Positions 1 to 49,087 of a stretch of DNA of 64,000 nt are shown here, in pieces (the stretch's first letter is position 1; each line of letters starts with the position of its first letter). The notes beneath the pieces were generated by a model, which did no database searches, was not told the origin of the DNA, and worked only from the letters and a program-made list of their open reading frames with translations. Both the position numbers and the translations under genes were made by a program. The DNA is from Terasakiella brassicae. Its GTDB lineage: Bacteria; Pseudomonadota; Alphaproteobacteria; Rhodospirillales; Terasakiellaceae. The stretch covers positions 1 through 64,000 of the forward strand of contig NZ_BMHV01000011.1 in the NCBI RefSeq assembly GCF_014641495.1. The letters are read 5' to 3'.

Positions 1-111
1 CTGATAGCCAAAGGGAAAAGGCCAATTGTGGCCTTAACAGCCGCCATGAGAAAACTGATCGTCATCATCAACGCAAAAATACGTGACGAAGTGTTTGCTC
101 AAGAGAGTTGA
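1..111 (+). CDS. IS110-family transposase, C-terminal end (partial)
   Basis: The first 36 codons form an open frame that runs in from outside the window and ends at TGA. The peptide has the pattern seen at the C-terminus of IS110/IS116/IS902 transposases: a basic GKR segment, a hydrophobic ALTAAMRKLIVIINA helix, then a short acidic tail. These enzymes are DEDD-type recombinases with a C-terminal serine domain, and they insert DNA with the help of an element-encoded bridge RNA (family knowledge). Only the tail is visible here, so neither catalytic residues nor the RNA can be checked. The stop codon lies almost on the element boundary, because repeat sequence shared with two other sites begins at about position 110. 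A very short right end of this kind suits the IS110 rather than the IS1111 subgroup. Confidence 0.72.
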   Translation: MIAKGKRPIVALTAAMRKLIVIINAKIRDEVFAQES

Positions 112-160
112 TGACGGATTTTGGTCAATTATTTACTAAAAACACTTTGTCAGCAGTCTG
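110..160 (+). repeat. Right half of the terminator-associated repeat, interrupted by IS110
   Basis: These 51 bases match the right end of the 166-bp repeat at 47689-47854. From the shared TTTTGGTCAATTATTTAC block to the terminal CAGCAGTCTG the two copies are identical. The first bases (GATGACGG) match the third copy at 10811-10950, read on the minus strand. The left half is missing and is replaced by the transposase end, so the IS seems to have inserted inside the repeat's palindrome. A strong terminator hairpin follows directly. Confidence 0.75.
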
Positions 161-187
161 GGAGGCGATTATGCCTCCCTTTTTTTA
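160..187 (+). terminator. Rho-independent terminator (plus strand)
   Basis: A perfect 7-bp stem (GGGAGGC / GCCTCCC) with a 6-base loop is followed by TTTTTTT. It points rightward, so it would end transcription from the IS or from the gene that lay upstream before the IS inserted. It starts right at the outer end of the repeat. Confidence 0.8.
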
Positions 188-10784: not shown

Positions 10785-10810
10785 TCATAATCTTATCCCG
10801 AATCCGCGTT

Positions 10811-10950
10811 AAATAATTGACCCAAGGCCGTCATCCCGCGCTTGATGCGGGATCCATTTAAAATCAATGGATTAGATGTTACTCATTGGACAAAGATGGA
10901 TCCCCGATCAGGGTCGGGGATGACAGTTTAAGGGCTTTGTCAATAATCTG
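10811..10950 (-). repeat. 140-bp palindromic repeat (minus orientation relative to the 47.7 kb copy)
   Basis: Read on the minus strand this sequence matches 47689-47829 with only a few differences. It includes outer CAG(A/G)TTATTGACAAAG, an inner palindrome built on CCCCGACCCTGATCGGGGAT and a second palindrome GATCCCGCATCAAGCGCGGGAT. It lacks the last 25 bases of the other copy. Immediately beyond the CAG end, on the plus strand, lie GGCAAG / CTTGC and seven T residues (10951-10974), a weak terminator-like hairpin. It carries no reading frame and looks like a non-autonomous REP/MITE-type element. Confidence 0.8.
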
Positions 10951-20391: not shown

Positions 20392-22389
20392 ATGTTTCAT
20401 AAAATTCTGATTGCAAACCGTGGCGAGATTGCTTGCCGTGTCATTAAAACGGCGCGCCGGATGGGGATAAAGACGGTTGCGGTTTATTCCGATGCCGATG
20501 CCAGTGCCATGCATGTGGCAATGGCGGACGAAGCTTTTCATATCGGCGGGTCAGCCGCAGCGGAAAGTTATCTATGCTACGATAAAATTATTGATATCTG
20601 TAAAAAATCCGGGGCGCAAGCCGTGCATCCGGGTTATGGCTTCCTGTCGGAAAATGCGGCCTTTTGCCGGGCCTTGGCGGAAAACGATATTACTTTTATC
20701 GGCCCGCCTGTCGGCGCGATTGAGGCAATGGGGTCCAAATCCGAAGCCAAAAAGATTATGGAAAATGCCAACGTTCCGTTGGTACCCGGCTTCCACGGTG
20801 AAGAACAAAGCGTGGAATTGATGCTGAGCGAAGCCGAAAAAATCGGTTATCCGGTCATCTTAAAAGCCTCTGCCGGTGGGGGCGGAAAAGGGATGCGGGT
20901 TGTCTGGAATGCAGATGAAATGTCTGCGGCCTATGACGCAGCCAAACGCGAAGCTATGAAAGGCTTTGGCGACGATCATATGTTGATTGAAAAATACCTG
21001 ACCAAGCCACGCCATGTGGAAATTCAGGTCTTTGCCGATCAACATGACAATGTGGTCTATTTGTTTGAACGTGATTGTTCCGTTCAACGTCGTCACCAAA
21101 AAGTGTTTGAAGAAGCCCCCGCCCCGATGATGGCGCAAGACCTGCGTAGCAAAATGGGGGAAGCCGCCTGCAATGCGGCCCGTGCCATTGGATACGAAGG
21201 TGCCGGAACGGTCGAATTCTTGCTGGATGAAGACGGGTCTTTCTATTTCATGGAAATGAATACCCGCTTGCAGGTGGAACATCCGGTTACGGAAATGATC
21301 ACCGGCGAAGACCTTGTGGAATGGCAATTGCGGGTGGCAGCCGGCCAAAACCTGCCGCGCAAACAGGATGATTTGACGATCAACGGTCATGCGATTGAAG
21401 TGCGCGTTTATGCCGAAGACCCGGATAATGATTTTCTTCCGGCAACCGGGAAATTAAAACATCTGCGCCCGCCACAAGAAAGTGCGCATGTGCGCATTGA
21501 TACCGGTGTGCGTGAAGGGGATGAAGTGTCCATTCACTATGACCCGATGATTTCCAAGCTGATTGTTTGGGCCAATACACGCGAAGGGGCCTTGCGTCAT
21601 TTGCGTAAAGCCTTGAACGAATATCAGGTTGTCGGTGTCACAACGAATATTGAATTTTTGGCAACCGTTGCCGCACATCCTGCATTTGTTAATTTTGATG
21701 TGGATACGGGCTTTATTGCAAAACACGAAAGTGATTTGTTCCCGGATCGTGAAAATATCACGGATGATGCCTTGGCCTTGGCGTGTCTGGATGTCTTTAT
21801 CAGTCGTGATGAAGAAGCCCAGTCCCATGCGGATTGGTCGGGTGACCCGTTTAGCCCGTGGAACAGCACCAGCGGTTTCCGTATGAATGATGATAATCAT
21901 CACGAGCTTTATTTCATCAATGGCGAAGATATTATCACCGTAACTTGCCATTATCGCGACGAAGGCTATCTGATGGAATTGCCGGGTGCCGATGTCATGG
22001 TGCGTGGTGTGCGTGATGAAAACGGGGATTTATTGGCTGATCTGGGCGGACGCCGAATGAAGGCAACCGTGGTCCGTCATGGCGAAGGGCTGGAAATTCT
22101 GGTACATGGTCAAGCCCATGCGCTGAAACTGTTTGATCCGTTGGCTGCGGCTGAAGGCATGAACGAAGCAAGCGGTTCCCTGACCTCGCCCATGCCGGGG
22201 AAAGTGGTTGCTGTTTTGGTGGAAAAAGATCAGAACGTTAAAGAAGGCGATAGCCTGATGATCCTTGAAGCCATGAAGATGGAACATACCATTTCCGCCC
22301 CGATGGACGGTGTGGTTGTCGATATCTTCTTTAATGCCGGTGATCAGCTTGAAGAAGGTGTGGAGCTGTTGAAAATCGATAGCGAGTAG
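20392..22389 (+). CDS. liuD: Methylcrotonyl-CoA carboxylase biotin-carboxylase (alpha) subunit
   Basis: A 665-residue biotin enzyme. The N-terminal part is a biotin carboxylase with ATP-grasp fold ([16 protein letters not shown], about residue 160; [14 protein letters not shown] near 295). After a BT-like middle domain, the C-terminal biotinyl domain carries EAMKMEH with the biotinylated lysine at residue 629. It charges biotin with bicarbonate and ATP for the LiuB carboxyltransferase. The ATG at 20392 is preceded by GAGGGGTAAG; an upstream in-frame ATG would overlap the liuC end and add non-family residues. Confidence 0.95.
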
Positions 22390-22403
22390 ATTTTGTAAAG
22401 TGT

Positions 22404-22429
22404 CCCCCTGCATCTCACCAGGGGCCTTT
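22404..22429 (+). terminator. Weak hairpin between liuD and liuE
   Basis: CCCCTG pairs with CAGGGG around an 8-base loop and is followed by CCTTTATT, with few T residues. It could act as a partial terminator or protect the upstream mRNA from 3' decay; complete termination inside the operon seems unlikely. Confidence 0.4.
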
Positions 22430-22445
22430 ATTCAGGGAGAAAACA

Positions 22446-23348
22446 ATGGCTTTACCCAAGAAAGTCAAAATTGTAGATGTCGGCCCACGCGATGGTCTGC
22501 AAAATGAAAAAGAAATTGTACCGACGAAGGCCAAGGTCGAATTGATCCATCGTCTTGCGGATGCGGGGCTTCCTGTGGTTGAGGCGGGCAGCTTTGTCTC
22601 GCCCAAGTGGGTACCGCAGATGGGCGACAGTGCAGAAATTATGAAAACGATTACCCGCAAGGCGGGCGTATCCTATCCGGTTCTAACTCCCAATATGAAG
22701 GGGTTTGAAGCGGCAATGGCGGTGAACGCGCAAGAGGTTGCCATTTTTGGGGCGGCGTCTGAAAGTTTTTCACAAAAGAACATTAATTGTTCGATTGCAG
22801 AAAGCCTTGCCCGTTTTGAACCGATCATGGCTGCAGCAAAAGAAAAAAACATTGCGGTGCGGGGATATGTTTCCTGTGTGGTCGGTTGTCCGTATGAAGG
22901 CGATATTGCCCCGGAAAAAGTGGCGGAAGTTGCGGCCAAGCTCTATGAAATGGGCTGCTATGAAATTTCGCTTGGCGACACGGTCGGGGTGGGGACACCG
23001 GGCAAGGTTCAGGATATGTTAAAGGCCGTTAGTGCGGTTGTCCCGATGGAAAAACTGGCTGTTCACTTCCATGATACGTATGGGCAGGCGTTGGCAAATA
23101 TCTATGCAGCCCTTGAAATGGGTGTGTCGGTTGTGGACTCGTCTGTTGCCGGATTGGGCGGCTGCCCTTATGCCAAAGGGGCGTCTGGTAATGTGGCGAC
23201 GGAAGATGTTGTTTACATGTTAAACGGATTGGGTATTGAAACCGGCGTCGATTTGGATAAATTGTGCGAGGCAGGACGCTTCATCAGTCATGTAATCGGT
23301 CGCGCACCTGCATCCAAGGTATCATTGGCATTGGGCGCACGCTGTTAA
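22446..23348 (+). CDS. liuE: Hydroxymethylglutaryl-CoA lyase
   Basis: The last step of the pathway: cleavage of HMG-CoA to acetyl-CoA and acetoacetate. The 300-residue TIM-barrel protein begins with [16 protein letters not shown], the HMGL-like metal-binding start, and has [10 protein letters not shown], the metal-binding His pair in HFHDTYGQ, and the catalytic Cys in [16 protein letters not shown]. All are diagnostic of HMG-CoA lyases, as opposed to isopropylmalate synthases. GGGAGA precedes the ATG. With liuA, liuB, liuC and liuD it completes the route from isovaleryl-CoA. Confidence 0.96.
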
Positions 23349-23394
23349 TCGGATAAACAGTTCATGTGCGCCTGTTACAGCATATGGGGCGTAC

Positions 23395-24072
23395 ATGAAC
23401 AAATCCGCAATGACCAATCTGGTTGCATTGTTATTCTGTGTAATCGGCTATTTTCTACCCGTACATGGGGATCTGTTTTTCACGGTCGGTCTTTTTGCGC
23501 TATCCGGTGGGATTACGAACTGGCTTGCCGTTCATATGCTGTTTGAAAAAGTCCCGTTTTTGTATGGTTCAGGTGTGATCCCCAGTCGGTTTGAAGATTT
23601 CAAAGCCGGGATCAAAAAACTTATTGTTGAAGAATTCTTTTCCCACGAACATATCGAACGTTTTTTCCTGCAAAATAGCGAGTCTATGGGATCGTCTATT
23701 GTTGAAAAAATCGATTTTGACCGGGTGTTTAACGGCTTGACAGAGGCAATCGAAGGTTCATCGCTGGGCGGGATGTTGTCGATGGTTGGCGGGCGCAAAG
23801 CCTTGGAACCTTTACGCGAGCCTGTAACCCAGAAACTTCAAAATATTGTTGGTGAACTTGCGGAAAGCTCAACCAAAGGAACCAGTACACAAGATGTAAC
23901 GGCGGCGCTGGTGGCAAAGGTCGAAGTCATTATCGACAACCGTTTAAACGAACTGACACCGCAAAATGTGAAAGACATCGTACAGGATATGATCCGTAAA
24001 CACTTGGGCTGGCTGGTTGTCTGGGGTGGTGTATTTGGTGGCCTGATCGGTCTGGTTATTGGTTTGATTTAG
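23395..24072 (+). CDS. DUF445-family membrane protein
   Basis: A 225-residue protein of the DUF445 (YheB/YjiN-like) family. Two hydrophobic segments are at the N-terminus (ALLFCVIGYFLPV and LFFTVGLFALSGGITNWLAVHMLFEKVP, which holds the conserved ITNWLA motif), and another is at the C-terminus (LVVWGGVFGGLIGLVIGLI). The middle is amphipathic and helical. The function of the family is unknown. It starts 46 bp after liuE and is likely the last gene of the operon, with no terminator seen between. Its last 17 bp overlap the end of the convergent SulP gene. Confidence 0.8.
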   Translation: MNKSAMTNLVALLFCVIGYFLPVHGDLFFTVGLFALSGGITNWLAVHMLFEKVPFLYGSGVIPSRFEDFKAGIKKLIVEEFFSHEHIERFFLQNSESMGSSIVEKIDFDRVFNGLTEAIEGSSLGGMLSMVGGRKALEPLREPVTQKLQNIVGELAESSTKGTSTQDVTAALVAKVEVIIDNRLNELTPQNVKDIVQDMIRKHLGWLVVWGGVFGGLIGLVIGLI

Positions 24073-28543: not shown

Positions 28544-29506
28544 CTAGCTTTTTGAAAATAAAAATCTCTCAAATACAGGTTGGGGAAGGCTTTTGATTAA
28601 TTTGCTCAAAACAAGCAAAACGAGGAAGGCAAATAACAGGCGGGCAAAGAGAATACCGCTCAGGTCCGCGCCAAGGGCAAGAATGAGCAACGTATCTTCC
28701 AGCGCGCTGTGAAACAGGCACATGAAGCTGAGGGAGAGGAAAATATCCTGTGAAGACATTTTGCCTTCCTTGGCTTCACGCAGAATTAACGCCCCCCCAT
28801 ATCCAAGCCCCAGCATGACACCGATCATCGTTACGGGAATGGCATTGGCACTGATCCCCATTAGCCCGAGCAGAGGGGAAAGCGCCTTGGAAATCAGATC
28901 GGTGATTTTCAATAGGTCCAGTATTTTTAATAAGAGGACAAGGGCAAAGATGATCCAGAAGATGGAGAACAGGGAGATAACACTATCCATGACCCATTGT
29001 TGCCAACTGGCGTCAGCTTGAGTGCTCGGTAACCATGAAATCACGCCATTTTCCTGTAACATGTCAAAGGATGTATAGACCGCGTTCAGAATGGCCCCCA
29101 ATGTCATGGCGCCGACAATGCGCAGTGCTGTGGTGGCAATCAGGCTGGGCCCGGATTTCTGGACAATACGTTGTTCGATCGGCAGGCTGTGTGCAATCAG
29201 GATCATGGTTCCCAAGACCGTAATTTGGGCAACGCTCATGGGGGCTTCGGGCAGCAGGGCGACAAGAGTAACCATACCGGCATAAATATTGACCAGCATG
29301 GCTGTTGTCCAGACGATCCCCGCTTCCGGTGGCAAGCCGACAAGGTCCATAAACGGGGTGAAAACGATGCTCACATACTCAATCAGGCCGAATTCAACGG
29401 CAATGCGCACCAGTACCATAATAGGTACCATGACTTTTAGCAGTTCCCAATAAAGGGTGAGGCTGTCACAAAATGGTTTTTTGACCCAGTCCAACAGTGT
29501 TTTCAT
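28544..29506 (-). CDS. Nucleoside-recognition GATE-domain membrane protein
   Basis: A 320-residue polytopic membrane protein with two nucleoside-recognition (Gate) domains, the fold shared with concentrative nucleoside transporters and sporulation proteins SpmA/SpmB. There are about 8 hydrophobic segments. Gate motifs are visible as FMDLVGLPPEAGIVWTTAMLVN in the first half and GLGYGGALILREAKEGK in the second. Function is uncertain; related proteins are predicted transporters. It is divergent from the Lrp-type gene across a 93-bp region with an inverted repeat, so control by that regulator is likely (inference). AAGGAT precedes the ATG. Confidence 0.8.
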   Translation of the reverse strand: MKTLLDWVKKPFCDSLTLYWELLKVMVPIMVLVRIAVEFGLIEYVSIVFTPFMDLVGLPPEAGIVWTTAMLVNIYAGMVTLVALLPEAPMSVAQITVLGTMILIAHSLPIEQRIVQKSGPSLIATTALRIVGAMTLGAILNAVYTSFDMLQENGVISWLPSTQADASWQQWVMDSVISLFSIFWIIFALVLLLKILDLLKITDLISKALSPLLGLMGISANAIPVTMIGVMLGLGYGGALILREAKEGKMSSQDIFLSLSFMCLFHSALEDTLLILALGADLSGILFARLLFAFLVLLVLSKLIKSLPQPVFERFLFSKS

Positions 29507-29572
29507 AATTTTATCCTTAGATCAACAAGTGGGTCTGACCTTAGAATAAAATTGAATCAATATGTGGTCAAA

Positions 29573-29592
29573 TATTGCAGCTTTATGCAATA
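29573..29592. promoter_or_regulatory. Inverted repeat in the divergent GATE-protein / Lrp promoter region
   Basis: TATTGCA-N6-TGCAATA is a perfect inverted repeat, and a third TATTGCA follows at 29594-29600, overlapping the Lrp start codon. AT-rich spaced half-sites of this type are usual for Lrp/AsnC proteins. The position would allow autoregulation and control of the divergent gene. Confidence 0.65.
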
Positions 29593-29599
29593 ATATTGC

Positions 29600-30034
29600 A
29601 TGGACAAGATTGATCGAAATATCGTCACGATTTTGCAAAAGAATGCGGATGTGACAAATGCAGCACTGGCTGAACAAGTGAACCTGTCGCCCAGCAGTTG
29701 TTTGCGCCGGGTTCAAAGGCTTAAACGCACAGGCGTGATTAAGAAAACGGTGGCGATAATTGATGATAAAGTTTTAGGGCGTAATCTGATCGCGGTGGTT
29801 GAGGTTGATTTGGATCGACATGGCGCACAGGCACAGGCCGTTTTACACGAACGATTAAGGCAGGAAATTTCCGTGACGCAAGCTTACGGCATTACAGGGG
29901 AAAGCGATTGCCTTCTGATCCTGAAGCTTGCGGATATGGATGAATATCGTCAGGTTTGTGAACGATTATTCAATCACGATAAAAATGTAATTCGTTTTCG
30001 GACGTCTTTTGTAATGAATGTGATTCAGTCTTGA
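29600..30034 (+). CDS. Lrp/AsnC-family transcriptional regulator
   Basis: A 144-residue Lrp/AsnC protein. The N-terminal winged helix (DKIDRNIVTILQKNADVTNAALAEQVNLSPSSCLRRVQRLKRTGVI, about residues 2-45) is followed by a RAM ligand-binding domain. No Shine-Dalgarno sequence is visible ahead of the ATG: the upstream bases are an operator-like repeat instead. The mRNA may be leaderless, or the start may differ. Its ligand, probably an amino acid, is unknown. It overlaps by 65 bp the 3' end of the convergent PilZ gene. Confidence 0.88.
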   Translation: MDKIDRNIVTILQKNADVTNAALAEQVNLSPSSCLRRVQRLKRTGVIKKTVAIIDDKVLGRNLIAVVEVDLDRHGAQAQAVLHERLRQEISVTQAYGITGESDCLLILKLADMDEYRQVCERLFNHDKNVIRFRTSFVMNVIQS

Positions 30035-30350
30035 ACGTTTTTTCAATATGATCCCCAACGGGGAGGATGCTTTCAACAAATTGGCGCATAACAGGTGGGC
30101 AACTGGTGAAAATCAGACCATGCGTTTCTTCATCATGCCAGCTTACAATGGCCTCGACATCCGCGATAAAGGGGATGTGAATTGTAACTTTTTGACCAAT
30201 CGGCAAGTACAATCCCTTATATCGGGTTTGCAGCTTCATTCCTTTGACTGAAATGTCTTTGACCCGAATTTCATATTCGCGGTCCTGAATGCGCACGGAT
30301 GCCAAAAAATCTATCCGCTGCCTTCTGTTTTTTCTATTCTCAGTTACCAT
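29970..30350 (-). CDS. PilZ-domain protein (c-di-GMP effector candidate)
   Basis: A 126-residue protein consisting of one PilZ domain. The two ligand motifs are recognisable: an Arg-rich RRQR (residues 9-12), and D-x-S-x-x-G as DISVKG (Asp32, Ser34, Gly37). In PilZ proteins these residues hold cyclic di-GMP. The C-terminal 30 residues (EKTFKTESHSLQKTSENELHFYRD) lie outside the domain and overlap the Lrp gene on the other strand. The ATG at 30350 has AAGGGG upstream; a 14-residue longer form from 30392 is possible. With the PAS-GGDEF-EAL protein at 61.4 kb it shows that c-di-GMP signalling is used. Confidence 0.82.
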   Translation of the reverse strand: MVTENRKNRRQRIDFLASVRIQDREYEIRVKDISVKGMKLQTRYKGLYLPIGQKVTIHIPFIADVEAIVSWHDEETHGLIFTSCPPVMRQFVESILPVGDHIEKTFKTESHSLQKTSENELHFYRD

Positions 30351-30487
30351 TTCTATTGCGCCCCTTCTTATCCTTTTGAAGTACTTTGGCATAAAATTGT
30401 ATTAATTCAAAGTGATTTATTGTTTTCTTATGTTTCGTTAATAAACGCAGGGATTGTGGTGTATTGCAGGGTAAGTTGGAATGGAAA

Positions 30488-30526
30488 TAAAAAACACCCT
30501 CGAAACACAGGGTTAGGAGGGTGTTA
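30488..30526 (-). terminator. Terminator of the ferric-binding-protein gene
   Basis: On the minus strand AACACCCTC pairs with GAGGGTGTT around a loop, followed by TTTTTTATT. It lies about 30 bp after the stop at 30556. Confidence 0.82.
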
Positions 30527-30555
30527 ATATATAGGTATTAGGAGACGGATTGCGC

Positions 30556-31596
30556 TTAACGCCAACCGGCCTGATCAAACATTTTGACAGCTTCTTTCTG
30601 ATGGGCTGCAAATTTTGCCAGTTCAATATCGTCGGCCTTAAATTTACCCCAAGCCGCAACGGTTGGTGAAAGTTCGATTCCATCACGTAACGGATATTCG
30701 AAGACATCTTTTGCATAGATGGCCTGAGCTTCGTCAGACGCGAGGAACTCGATCAATTTAACCGCATTTTCTTTGTTTTTTGCAGATTTTGTCACACCGG
30801 CACCAGAGATGTTTACATGAGCGCCCCGTCCCTCTTGGTTTGGCCAGACAAGTTCTACTTTGTCTGCTGCGGCTTTTTCACCTGCATCTTTGCCGGCTTG
30901 CATGCGGCCAAAATAGTAGGTGTTCCCAACGGCGACATCGCATTCGCCCGCCGCAACAGCCTTGATTTGGTCACGATCCCCGCCTTGAGGTTTGCGGGCC
31001 AGATTATCGACAACAGCCTTGGTCCATGTCGCGGCGTTTTCTTTGCCGTTATGTTCGATCAATGAACCGAGCAAGGATTGATTATAGATATTGCCGGAGG
31101 AACGAATGCAGATACGGTTGGCCCATTTGGGGTCGGCTAAATCTTCGTATGTGCTGATTTCGCCCGGCTTGACACGGTCTTTTGCGGTGAAGATAACACG
31201 TGAGCGCAAAGAAAGACCAAACCATTGACCTTTCGGGTCACGATATTGTGCCGGGATCAATTTGGACAAGGTATCAGATTCAACGGATTGAAGAACACCT
31301 GCATCTTCTGCACGGATCAAACGACCAACATCGGCAGTAATCAGAATATCGGCAGGGCTGTTCATGCCTTCGCTTTTCAGGCGCTCCAGAAGAACGTCTG
31401 CTTTACCGTTGACCAAGTTAACTTTGATCCCTGTGTTTTCAGTAAAGCGATCCAGCAAAGGACGGATCAAAACCTCTTTGCGGTAAGAATAGATATTTAC
31501 TTCTTCGGCCGCATTTGCGTTCATGTTGAAAGAGGTCAAGCCAACGATACCAGCCACAAGTGAAAGTGCGGTTTTGCTCAGTGATATTTTCTTCAT
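30556..31596 (-). CDS. Fe(3+) ABC-transporter periplasmic binding protein (FbpA/FutA/IdiA type)
   Basis: A 346-residue periplasmic protein with a Sec signal peptide (MKKISLSKTALSLVAGIVG... cleaved near ANA-AEE, residue 29-30). The mature part begins with EVNIYSYR, the usual start of the ferric-binding class of solute-binding proteins. The Tyr pair that holds iron is visible in VGNTYYFGRM. No permease or ATPase gene is adjacent; it may pair with a distant FbpBC. The ATG at 31596 is chosen because the signal peptide starts there; a 28-residue extension upstream has no such feature. A Fur-type box lies just upstream. Confidence 0.9.
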   Translation of the reverse strand: MKKISLSKTALSLVAGIVGLTSFNMNANAAEEVNIYSYRKEVLIRPLLDRFTENTGIKVNLVNGKADVLLERLKSEGMNSPADILITADVGRLIRAEDAGVLQSVESDTLSKLIPAQYRDPKGQWFGLSLRSRVIFTAKDRVKPGEISTYEDLADPKWANRICIRSSGNIYNQSLLGSLIEHNGKENAATWTKAVVDNLARKPQGGDRDQIKAVAAGECDVAVGNTYYFGRMQAGKDAGEKAAADKVELVWPNQEGRGAHVNISGAGVTKSAKNKENAVKLIEFLASDEAQAIYAKDVFEYPLRDGIELSPTVAAWGKFKADDIELAKFAAHQKEAVKMFDQAGWR

Positions 31597-46254: not shown

Positions 46255-47634
46255 ATGACCATTTCCATCAATCCCAATATTTTGCGCGAATACGATATTC
46301 GCGGCATTGTTGGTGATACTTTTACCGAAGAAGCTGTTGAACAATTAGGCCGCGCTTTTGGGACACGCGTTGTTCGTGCGGGCGGCAAATCCGTTGCTGT
46401 CGGATATGACGGGCGACTCAGCTCGCCTGCACTGGCTGCTGCTGCTGTGAAGGGCTTGACAGCCTGTGGGCTTCAGGTTTTCGAGGTAGGCCGTGGTCCT
46501 ACGCCGATGCTTTATTATGCGACCTATGCGTTGAATAGTGATGCGGGGCTGATGATTACAGGCTCGCATAATCCGCCGGATTATAACGGTATGAAACTCA
46601 TGCTGTCCGGCTTGTCCTTCTTCGGTGCCGATATCCAAGACCTTGGGCGTCTGATTGAAGCTCAGGATTTTGAGAACGGGGAAGGGGAGAGTACACAGCG
46701 CCCTCTGCTGAATGGGTATGTAGAACGCATTCTATCCGATTTTAAACCCGGACGAGACTTGAAAATTGCATGGGATGCCGGAAATGGTGTGGCAGGGGAA
46801 GCCATGCGCATGATCTGTGACAAACTCCCCGGTCAGCATTCTTTATTGTTTGAAGATATTGACGGGACATTCCCGAACCATCACCCCGATCCAACCGTTG
46901 AAAAAAACCTCGTGGATTTAAAAAAGTGTGTTGCCGATCAAGCTTGTGATCTGGGAATTGCTTTTGATGGGGATGGGGATCGCATCGGTGTGGTTGACAG
47001 TCAGGGCCGTGTGCTTTGGGGGGATCAGCTTATGGTCATTTGGGCAAAAGAGATTTTGTCGCGTAAACCCGGCTCAACCATTATCGCAGATGTGAAGGCG
47101 TCTCAGGTCTTGTTTGATGAAATTGCACGCATGGGCGGTCAGCCGATGATGTGGAAAACCGGGCATTCCCTGATTAAATCCAAGATGAAAGAACTTGAAT
47201 CTCCGTTTGCCGGTGAGATGAGCGGCCATATCTTCTTTAAGGATGGTTATTACGGTTTTGATGATGCGCTTTATGCGGCAATCCGTTTGATCTCCATTCT
47301 GACGCAAACGGATGAAACGTTGGACAGCATGCTGGATGGCATGCCGAAAATGATCAATACACCGGAATTACGTTTTGACTGCCCTGAAGATCGCAAATTT
47401 GCCGTTGCAGAAGAAGTCAAGGCACGCTTGGCCGGGGATACGACCCTTAAGGTGATTGATGTGGATGGGGTGCGTGTTGTCACTGAGGATGGCTGGTGGC
47501 TATTACGGGCCTCCAACACGCAACCGGTTCTTGTTGCCCGCTGTGAGGCGAAGGATGAAGCCGGGTTGGTGCGCCTGAAAGCAAACCTCGTGGAACAACT
47601 GGAAGCCAGCCAAATTGCAGCACCGGATTTCTAA
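46255..47634 (+). CDS. Phosphomannomutase/phosphoglucomutase (AlgC/ManB type)
   Basis: A 459-residue alpha-D-phosphohexomutase. The start domain reads LREYDIRGIVGD, the phosphoserine loop is MITGSHNPPDYNGMK, the metal-binding loop is FDGDGDRIGVVD, and the C-terminal phosphate-binding motif is RASNTQPVL. Such AlgC-type enzymes interconvert mannose- or glucose-6-P and 1-P, supplying galU. The ATG at 46255 is preceded by AAGGGGAAAC; an upstream in-frame start at 46225 lies in the terminator. The stop is followed by the duplicated terminator region. Confidence 0.92.
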   Translation: MTISINPNILREYDIRGIVGDTFTEEAVEQLGRAFGTRVVRAGGKSVAVGYDGRLSSPALAAAAVKGLTACGLQVFEVGRGPTPMLYYATYALNSDAGLMITGSHNPPDYNGMKLMLSGLSFFGADIQDLGRLIEAQDFENGEGESTQRPLLNGYVERILSDFKPGRDLKIAWDAGNGVAGEAMRMICDKLPGQHSLLFEDIDGTFPNHHPDPTVEKNLVDLKKCVADQACDLGIAFDGDGDRIGVVDSQGRVLWGDQLMVIWAKEILSRKPGSTIIADVKASQVLFDEIARMGGQPMMWKTGHSLIKSKMKELESPFAGEMSGHIFFKDGYYGFDDALYAAIRLISILTQTDETLDSMLDGMPKMINTPELRFDCPEDRKFAVAEEVKARLAGDTTLKVIDVDGVRVVTEDGWWLLRASNTQPVLVARCEAKDEAGLVRLKANLVEQLEASQIAAPDF

Positions 47635-47662
47635 AGGTTTGTCTCTAACAATAAACATAAAA

Positions 47663-47688
47663 AAACGCCCTCATTTTTTAGGGCGTTT
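47663..47688. terminator. Terminator hairpin, left copy (bidirectional)
   Basis: AAACGCCCT / AGGGCGTTT with a CATTTTTT loop, preceded on the plus strand by an A-run that gives T7 on the minus strand. It serves the phosphohexomutase gene on its left and, read leftward, transcription coming from dacA. A one-mismatch copy lies on the far side of the 166-bp repeat. Confidence 0.8.
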
Positions 47689-47854
47689 CAGGTTATTGAC
47701 AAAGCCGCTCAACTGTCATCCCCGACCCTGATCGGGGATCCATCTTTGTCCAATGAGTAACATCTAATCCATTGATTTTAAATGGATCCCGCATCAAGTG
47801 CGGGACAACGGCTTTTGGTCAATTATTTACTAAAAACACTTTGTCAGCAGTCTG
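47689..47854 (+). repeat. 166-bp MITE-like repeat inside a duplicated terminator
   Basis: The element starts with CAGGTTATTGACAAAG and ends with CTTTGTCAGCAGTCTG, imperfect terminal inverted repeats. Inside are two palindromes built on CCCCGACCCTGATCGGGGAT and GATCCCGCATCAAGTGCGGG. No reading frame is seen. Related copies are at 10811-10950 (opposite orientation, shorter) and 110-160 (right end only). It is flanked by 26-bp direct copies of a terminator hairpin (47663-47688 and 47855-47880) with one mismatch. Confidence 0.85.
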
Positions 47855-47882
47855 AAACGCCCTCATTTTTTAGGGTGTTTTT
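47855..47882. terminator. Terminator hairpin, right copy (bidirectional)
   Basis: AAACGCCCT / AGGGTGTTT with CATTTTTT loop and a following T-run on the plus strand. It differs from the left copy by one base (C to T in the right arm). It ends about 15 bp from the dacA stop. Confidence 0.8.
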
Positions 47883-47896
47883 TGTTTTGTATCGTT

Positions 47897-49087
47897 TTAT
47901 TTATTCAAGGCCACTTGTGTCGATTTTGCGCGAAAGACCATGCAAGGTTGACGCATTTTTTTCAAGGCACGACAGGCGCGGTAGGCTTCGCGTTTTTCCA
48001 CGCCGACAACACGGGCACGATACACTGATTTCTGACCGTTTTTCAAAGGCACGACCATAGTCTGAGCACCGCTTAAATAGCTCGGGGCGCGTTTAACTGC
48101 TGCGATGGCCTGACGTTCAGCCTTGGAATATGTGCCATAGGCCCCAACCTGAACGCCCCAGCCTGTAGAGCGGCGCTTGGAGGCCACTTCCTGCACGCGT
48201 TGTTCTTTTTTGGCTTTCGTTTTTTTCTGGTAGGCGGCCATCATTTGCGGATCAACTTTTGTGAAGGATTGATCAAGAATGCGCGCCATGATGTTGTTGC
48301 GTTGTGTGGCTGTCTTGCCGCCAAAGACAACACCGACCAGACGGTGTCCCTCCCGGTTAACCGAAGACACAAGGTTAAAGCCGGAAGCACGGATATAGCC
48401 GGTTTTAATGCCGTCCATACCATCGTATTTTTTCATCAGCTTATTGTGGTTGCCGTAGGTACGTCCTTTGTATGTCCAGCTTTCTGTTTTGAAATAGCTG
48501 TAATATTGCGGGAAACGTTTCCATAACGTATTGCCCAGTTTTGCCATATCGCGCGCTGTACTGAGTTGGCGACGATGAGGCAGGCCGGAGGCATTGCGAA
48601 ATGTTGTACGCGTCATGCCGATCTCTTTGGCCTTCTTGGTCATTTCTTTGGCAAATTCCCATTCCGTACCGCCTAAATGTTCGGCAACGACCGTGGCGAC
48701 ATCATTGGCAGATTTGGTGACAAGTGCATAAATCGCATCTTCCACCCGGATGTGGCTACCGCGTTTCAAACCCAACCGAGAAGGGGGTTGCCATGTGGCG
48801 CGGCGTGACACACGCATTTTTGTATCCAGCGTGACCTTTTTGCTTTCAAGGGCTTCGAACAGCATGAAAAGGGTCATCATTTTCGTCAGGGAGGCCGGGT
48901 AATTGCGCGTATCAGCATTGGTGTTCTGTAGAACTTTACCTGTCTCGGCATCCATCACAAAGGTGGCATATTTTGCCTGAGCAGGTACGATCAGGAAGGT
49001 CAAGCAGGCAAAAAGTGCAACCAGTCCCCATTTAACCGCTGTTCGTTTTGTTGTTTGAAATGTTCGATAGTGTGTTCTAGCGTTCAT
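47897..49087 (-). CDS. D-alanyl-D-alanine carboxypeptidase (S11, DacA/PBP5 type) with SPOR-like C-terminus
   Basis: A 396-residue penicillin-binding protein. The signal peptide or anchor lies in residues 16-38 (TAVKWGLVALFACLTFLIVPAQA). The three active-site motifs are all present: SxxK as ASLTKMM, SxN as KSANDV, and KTG as GIKTGYI. They trim the peptidoglycan stem D-Ala. The C-terminal 90 residues (about 305-396; GWGVQVGAYGTYSKAERQAIAA and VGVEKREAYRACRALKK) look like a SPOR domain, which binds denuded glycan strands at septa; this fusion suggests work at the division site. The ATG at 49087 follows the family start. Confidence 0.92.
   Translation of the reverse strand: MNARTHYRTFQTTKRTAVKWGLVALFACLTFLIVPAQAKYATFVMDAETGKVLQNTNADTRNYPASLTKMMTLFMLFEALESKKVTLDTKMRVSRRATWQPPSRLGLKRGSHIRVEDAIYALVTKSANDVATVVAEHLGGTEWEFAKEMTKKAKEIGMTRTTFRNASGLPHRRQLSTARDMAKLGNTLWKRFPQYYSYFKTESWTYKGRTYGNHNKLMKKYDGMDGIKTGYIRASGFNLVSSVNREGHRLVGVVFGGKTATQRNNIMARILDQSFTKVDPQMMAAYQKKTKAKKEQRVQEVASKRRSTGWGVQVGAYGTYSKAERQAIAAVKRAPSYLSGAQTMVVPLKNGQKSVYRARVVGVEKREAYRACRALKKMRQPCMVFRAKSTQVALNK

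What the first reader, a model, noticed from the sequence alone, without database searches (positions are those of the whole stretch)
47663..47882. A 166-bp MITE-like repeat flanked by a 26-bp duplicated terminator
The two 26-bp hairpins on either side of the repeat differ at one base, so the terminator has been duplicated with the element in between. That gives each convergent gene its own terminator. A 26-bp duplication is too long for a usual target-site duplication. The terminator itself may be the target, or a rearrangement between repeats may be the source.
Basis: partly seen in the sequence, partly recalled or inferred. Interest (0 to 1): 0.62.

Follow-up and report, generated by a model that had tools for sequence, protein, structure and literature searches.

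The report
Jumping DNA that duplicates terminator hairpins
A small parasitic DNA element in a marine bacterium (and its full-size IS1182-type relatives across several phyla) lands in the stem-loop "stop signs" at gene ends and copies the whole stem-loop to both sides, so the length of the duplicated target is set by the hairpin rather than by a fixed stagger.

Summary
Window 47689-47854 is a 166-bp MITE flanked by two 26-bp copies (25/26 identical) of one bidirectional terminator hairpin. The genome (Terasakiella sp.) holds about 30 related copies; 13 of 16 with both ends are flanked by their own locus-specific hairpin, duplicated, and 15 of 16 lie between convergent genes. The element shares its 16-bp ends with an IS1182-family insertion sequence in Terasakiella pusilla, where all 13 insertions whose two sides could be paired have a perfect 21-31-bp target duplication equal to the hairpin. 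The same clade of IS1182 transposases does this in Burkholderia, Rhizobium, Marinobacter, Lentisphaera, Staphylococcus, Enterococcus and others (20 further sites). Duplications are centred on the hairpin dyad in 24 of 26 tested IS sites. Empty sites carry one hairpin. So the terminator is the target, and the 26-bp duplication is a structure-defined target-site duplication. [quoted passage not shown] The relative IS1272 instead deletes its hairpin; whole-hairpin duplication was only a hypothetical pathway in the paper read. New variant of a known kind; curated IS databases, not readable here, may note part of it.

The parts
47663..47688 (.). Left copy of the target hairpin (target-site duplication, 26 bp). 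Preceded by A7, so it keeps the T-tract for - strand transcripts.
47689..47854 (+). 166-bp MITE, non-autonomous relative of an IS1182-family element
   Evidence: ends shared with the T. pusilla IS
47689..47704 (+). Left terminal inverted repeat CAGGTTATTGACAAAG
47839..47854 (-). Right terminal inverted repeat (reverse complement CAGACTGCTGACAAAG)
47721..47804 (.). Internal pair of REP-like palindromes (CCCGACCCTGATCGGGGATCCAT / ATGGATCCCGCATCAAGTGCGGG)
   Evidence: I2; the first is also listed by the terminator scan
47855..47880 (.). Right copy of the target hairpin (one mismatch). Followed by a T-run, so it keeps the T-tract for + strand transcripts.
46255..47634 (+). Phosphomannomutase/phosphoglucomutase-like gene, left convergent neighbour (annotation from its sequence; no family search was run on it)
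   Evidence: relatives at 82-86% identity
47897..49120 (-). D-alanyl-D-alanine carboxypeptidase-like gene, right convergent neighbour (annotation from its sequence; no family search was run on it)

Best explanation
The feature is one insertion of a MITE mobilised (now or formerly) by an IS1182-family transposase of a clade that uses DNA hairpins, mostly bidirectional intrinsic terminators between convergent genes, as its target. Proposed steps: (1) the inverted repeat at the gene end is extruded as a cruciform; [quoted passage not shown] (3) repair of the two single-stranded arms copies the whole hairpin to each side. Shown: the target is a hairpin, the duplication is the whole hairpin centred on its dyad, its length varies with the hairpin, and empty sites have one copy. 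Inferred: the cruciform state, the joining chemistry, and mobilisation of the MITE in trans by the IS1182 transposase (shared 16-bp ends, same target behaviour, IS1182 left-end remnant in the genome). Consequence, inferred: host genes keep a hairpin plus T-tract in each direction, but the transcripts of both now run through the element first.
For: MITE: 13 of 16 two-ended copies have a duplicated hairpin that differs from locus to locus; ungapped estimates are 20-29 bp, and three of the 13 (L008, L009, L010) need an indel or many mismatches. 15 of 16 lie between convergent genes against 19% of neighbouring ORF pairs in the window, binomial p about 1e-10. Autonomous IS: T. pusilla element of 1560 bp, 464-aa transposase, NF033551 IS1182 481 bits against a cut-off of 270; 13/13 paired insertions have exact hairpin duplications of 21-31 bp, 11/13 between convergent genes. 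Breadth: 20 further sites in Pseudomonadota, Desulfuromonadales, Lentisphaera and Bacillota. Symmetry: dyad offset 0 in 24 of 26 IS duplications; one of the two exceptions is explained by one base of chance extension. Empty sites: the terminator AACGCCACCCGAAGGTGGCGTT, duplicated in B. dolosa, is present once (same or nearly same sequence) in 14 of the 19 related genomes read; the window locus has a single, different hairpin in G001, G003 and G004. Clade: every clean case falls in one transposase clade with CAGA-type ends; IS1182 members with TGTTGAARAA-type ends outside it show no hairpin repeat. IS1182 left-end remnant in the same genome (L221).
Against: No intact IS1182 transposase is in the assembled genome (best E 1e-5, and those hits look like IS982-type ORFs), so current mobility of the MITE is not shown. 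MITE and T. pusilla IS share only their ends. 3 of 16 MITE copies, and about eight of the IS copies read, lack the duplication (mostly two different hairpins). In several sites complementary base pairs extend beyond the duplicated segment, so the cut is symmetrical but not always at the outermost base of the arm. No experiment shows extrusion or cleavage. The prevalence of terminators among insertion sites could partly reflect selection against harmful insertions.
Confidence: 0.83

Rival explanations
1. Ordinary DDE transposition with a long, loosely fixed stagger (about 24 bp) that merely prefers gene ends; hairpins are duplicated because they happen to lie there.
For: Duplications of 14-31 bp have a mean of 24 and sd of 4; insertions are intergenic.
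Against: The duplicated block is centred on the hairpin dyad in 24 of 26 cases and starts and ends at opposed positions of the stem; a sequence-blind stagger would fall off-centre. Length varies within one IS in one genome, 21-31 bp.
Confidence: 0.06
2. Recombination or gene conversion between repeats, or capture of a hairpin by the element, produced the flanking hairpins.
For: A few copies have two different hairpins (L003, L005, L128, L191, L194, L230, L235, L237), and in one Staphylococcus simulans plasmid the same hairpin is on the left of one copy and on the right of an inverted neighbour copy, so inter-copy recombination does occur.
Against: The hairpins are locus-specific and native to the site: an orthologous single copy is present in empty Burkholderia sites. 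Recombination separates matched pairs; it does not create them.
Confidence: 0.03
3. The element recognises active transcription termination (paused RNA polymerase or R-loop) rather than DNA secondary structure.
For: Most targets have terminator A/T tracts, and 26 of 29 Terasakiella sites lie between convergent genes.
Against: Some sites are palindromes without a usual T-tract (L126, L138, L132), and IS1272 of the same family also uses a hairpin inside a coding region (PMC4923244). Termination alone would not explain duplications matched to both arms.
Confidence: 0.12
4. Stem-loop replacement as in IS1272, with the second hairpin coming from elsewhere.
For: Same transposase family; IS1272 targets terminator hairpins (PMC5678879, PMC4923244).
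Against: IS1272 deletes the stem-loop and makes no target duplication; here both copies are present at full length.
Confidence: 0.02

Closest known systems
IS1272 / TnSha1 (IS1182 family), staphylococci
   Same: Same transposase family; 16-bp terminal inverted repeats; targets stem-loops, several shown to be terminators, without sequence consensus (PMC5678879, PMC4923244).
   Different: IS1272 removes or replaces the stem-loop with no target duplication; here the whole stem-loop is duplicated. Pathway 'b' of Fig 13 in PMC5678879 (joining at the 5' feet duplicates the stem-loop) is drawn there as a possibility and is what these sequences show.
ISEfa7 (IS1182 family), Enterococcus faecium
   Same: Falls in the same transposase clade, has the same type of ends, and two plasmid copies carry hairpin duplications of 20-21 bp.
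   Different: About 43% identical transposase; a full IS, not a MITE. No description of its target duplications was found in the papers searched.
ISCfr1 and other IS1182 members with TGTTGAARAA-type ends
   Same: Same NCBI family label.
   Different: Outside the hairpin-duplicating clade; the four copies read (L195-L198) have no hairpin repeat. ISPse1 of Paracoccus is listed with a 4-bp duplication (PMC3281130).
IS1111/IS110-type and other REP-targeting IS
   Same: Also insert at palindromes (IS1111 in the GTAG palindrome of QMITE2, PMC10969869).
   Different: As I recall (not tested), those insert without copying the whole hairpin and use a different transposase chemistry.

Membership tests
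MITE (non-autonomous IS derivative) | Short, non-coding, multicopy, terminal inverted repeats, target duplication | tested here: met
   166 bp, 16-bp TIRs, about 30 relatives, 13/16 two-ended copies with duplicated target
MITE mobilised by an IS1182-family element | Shares ends with an autonomous IS | tested here: met
   CAGRYTRYTGACAAAG fits the MITE ends and the T. pusilla IS left end; the right end of that IS (CAGATCTCTGACAAA) is more divergent
MITE mobilised by an IS1182-family element | Intact transposase in the same genome | tested here: not met
   NF033551 finds nothing better than E 1e-5 in G000; only a left-end remnant at G000:C50:7209. The draft assembly may lack one.
MITE mobilised by an IS1182-family element | Demonstrated trans-mobilisation | not testable with these tools
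   Needs a transposition assay
IS1182 family (for the autonomous partner) | Transposase scores above the curated family cut-off; DUF772 + DDE_Tnp_1_6 | tested here: met
   NF033551 480.6 bits against 270; PF05598, PF13751
IS1272-type stem-loop replacement | Target stem-loop deleted, no target duplication | tested here: not met
   Whole hairpin present on both sides
Intrinsic terminator (the target) | GC-rich stem followed by a T-tract, at a gene 3' end | tested here: met
Known structured RNA family | Rfam match | tested here: not met
   no family at gathering threshold in 47500-48000

The most novel reading that the evidence does not exclude
A cross-phylum clade of IS1182 transposases is a structure-guided integration system: it reads the geometry of a cruciform rather than sequence, so the size of the target duplication is set by the target's own hairpin, and it spares genes by duplicating rather than destroying their terminators.
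Probability: 0.6. Interest if true: 0.75.

Novelty: new variant of a known kind. Interest (0 to 1): 0.62.

Why it matters
Target-duplication length is normally a fixed property of a DDE transposase. Here it is set by the target hairpin, which makes cruciform recognition by a transposase directly testable. It supplies sequence evidence, over many sites and several phyla, for the whole-stem-loop duplication pathway that was only a drawn alternative in the IS1272 paper. It also explains a class of terminator pairs flanking repeats between convergent genes, and points to a gene-sparing landing site of possible use for tools.

Tried and rejected
(1) IS110-like partner, my first guess from an ORF end beside a shared right end (L026/L028): these are foreign IS fragments inside copies of the element; the family scan of the 36-aa fragment gave nothing. 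(2) IS982 and IS3 ORFs next to shared ends (C19, C38, C14 contig ends): passengers, not the source of the ends. (3) Direct MITE homologues in other species: only short internal palindromes match. (4) A first direct-repeat script failed on loci where the two search intervals overlapped (L100, L101, L110, L112, L118); redone with borders placed by the terminal repeats. (5) More distant IS1182 copies L094-L099: no matching terminal and hairpin repeats found within the searched flanks; L094 belongs to the clade but its ends were not found; not pursued. (6) Rfam: nothing. (7) The FEMS review of IS families is not held, so the curated family table could not be read. (9) ORF-based gene orientation for high-GC loci (such as L125) is unreliable and was not used as evidence.

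Full report
WHAT IS THERE. The window is contig C11 of a Terasakiella genome; the genus follows because genome G002, listed as the same genus, gives the same contigs as Terasakiella pusilla DSM 6293. Between a phosphomannomutase-like gene (+, ends 47634) and a D-alanyl-D-alanine carboxypeptidase-like gene (-, ends 47897) lie two 26-bp hairpins, 47663-47688 and 47855-47880, 25/26 identical, with exactly 166 bp between them. No other repeat of that quality and spacing exists in the window. The hairpins fold well beyond shuffles. The 166-bp insert has imperfect 16-bp terminal inverted repeats and an internal pair of palindromes.

POLARITY. The original site was, by inference, a bidirectional terminator: A7, stem-loop, T-run. 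After insertion the A-tract stays with the left copy and the T-tract with the right copy. The scan therefore finds an intact terminator on the - strand only at the left copy and on the + strand only at the right copy. For each gene the hairpin next to it has lost its T-tract and the working terminator is the distal one, so both transcripts should include the element (inferred).

OTHER COPIES. The genome has about 30 related places. Read with flanks, 16 copies keep both ends. Thirteen are flanked by the same hairpin on both sides, and the hairpin differs from site to site; three of the thirteen (L008, L009, L010) show it only by eye or with an indel. The other three do not: L003 has two different hairpins, L005 looks nested (a second right-end remnant and the two halves of another hairpin further out), and L023 has none. 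Fifteen of the 16 lie between convergent genes, mostly 26-60 bp from the gene ends; convergent pairs make up 10 of 54 neighbouring ORF pairs in the window (binomial p about 1e-10, a rough background from ORFs only).

THE AUTONOMOUS RELATIVE. A pattern for the ends found contig ends in T. pusilla where hairpins abut CAGATTGCTGACAAAGGTCTC. Overlapping two such contig ends gives a 1560-bp element with a 464-aa transposase that scores 480.6 bits on the IS1182 family model (cut-off 270) and has DUF772 and DDE_Tnp_1_6. The element is multicopy and breaks the assembly, so the left-end and right-end contig pieces were paired by hairpin: 13 pairs, all with a perfect duplication of 21-31 bp that is the whole hairpin. 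Because pairing was done by the hairpin itself, the pairing is not independent of the result; but 13 of 15 left ends and 13 of 15 right ends found a unique exact partner, every unpaired end also abuts a hairpin, and in the other organisms both sides lie on one contig. Eleven of the 13 lie between convergent genes. The window genome has no intact IS1182 transposase, but an IS1182 left end, cut after about 90 bp and abutting a hairpin, remains at G000:C50:7209.

BREADTH. Relatives of the transposase were collected from genomes and plasmids. Perfect or one-mismatch hairpin duplications flank copies in Burkholderia (2), Marinobacter, Lentisphaera marina (5, two of them weak palindromes), Desulfuromonadales, Candidimonas, Variovorax, Paludifilum, Rhizobium leguminosarum, ISEfa7 of Enterococcus faecium (2), Staphylococcus simulans, S. 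arlettae, Macrococcoides, Peribacillus and Sutcliffiella: 20 sites, 14-30 bp, each with both sides on one contig. Seven further copies have a hairpin at each end but two different ones. In S. simulans two inverted neighbour copies share one hairpin between them, as expected after recombination between copies. One copy has no hairpin. In a tree of the transposases all clean cases fall in one clade; IS1182 members outside it, with different ends, show no hairpin repeats in the four copies where borders could be placed.

SYMMETRY. For 26 IS insertions the empty site was rebuilt from the flanks and the best hairpin located independently of the repeat; its dyad coincides with the centre of the duplication in 24. 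L127 is half a base off because one extra T matches by chance; L132 has a weak palindrome. First and last bases are most often A and T. In several sites pairing could continue outside the duplicated block, so the joined positions are opposed to each other but not always at the outermost pair.

EMPTY SITES. Query: joined flanks of the B. dolosa insertion. Fourteen of the 19 related genomes read carry the same or nearly the same AACGCCACC..GGTGGCGTT hairpin once; the others have lost or changed it. At the window locus, three congeners have one hairpin of different sequence, T. pusilla has none, and one has another gene. These are not orthologous hairpins, so the window locus alone would be weak evidence; the Burkholderia case is the strong one.

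MECHANISM. A sequence-blind stagger would not stay centred on dyads of changing length. [quoted passage not shown] joining the transposon ends there and filling in the arms copies the hairpin. This is pathway b of Fig 13 in PMC5678879, drawn there beside the replacement pathway proposed for IS1272. IS1272 and TnSha1 target hairpins and terminators but delete them, without duplication (PMC5678879, PMC4923244). Shown here: target, duplication, centring, empty sites. Inferred: cruciform, chemistry, trans-mobilisation of the MITE.

NOVELTY. Hairpin targeting in the IS1182 family is known, and PMC5678879 says that Siguier et al. noted palindromic targets without detail. I recall that the curated family table gives a wide range of direct-repeat lengths, but could not read it. 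What I did not find in the papers searched is whole-hairpin duplication as the rule in a defined clade, its dyad symmetry, the convergent-gene bias, or a MITE that does it. Hence a new variant of a known kind.

Noticed in passing
window 1-178: The contig begins with the end of a foreign ORF (..RPIVALTAAMRKLIVIINAKIRDEVFAQES*, IS110-like by eye, no family hit) joined to the element's right end (113-160) and a hairpin GGAGGCGATTATGCCTCC; the same joint recurs at the end of contig C1 (L028).
   Followed up: partly
window 10810-10950: Second, truncated copy of the element (- strand); its intact end abuts a hairpin GGGCAAGTGTTCTTGCTC.
   Followed up: partly
L033 and L034 (G000:C19, C38 starts), L037 (G000:C14 end): Units with the same ends carry IS982 and IS3-type transposase sequence as passengers; the C14 and C19 hairpins look like the two sides of one insertion, so composite units may move together.
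   Followed up: partly
L221 (G000:C50:7209): Remnant left end of an IS1182 element in the window's genome, abutting a hairpin; possible former source of transposase.
   Followed up: partly
L134 2396-2428 and 3969-4001: Ignavibacteriae copy in which the two flanking hairpins have the same stem but reverse-complemented loops, as if one hairpin had flipped.
   Followed up: no
L230 (S. simulans plasmid) 22010-23576 and 29254-30821: Two inverted IS copies share one hairpin between them, evidence of inversion by recombination between copies.
   Followed up: partly
L005 1400-1800: Apparent nested insertion: outer hairpin halves, a second right-end remnant (GTCAGCCGTCTG) and an inner different hairpin.
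   Followed up: no
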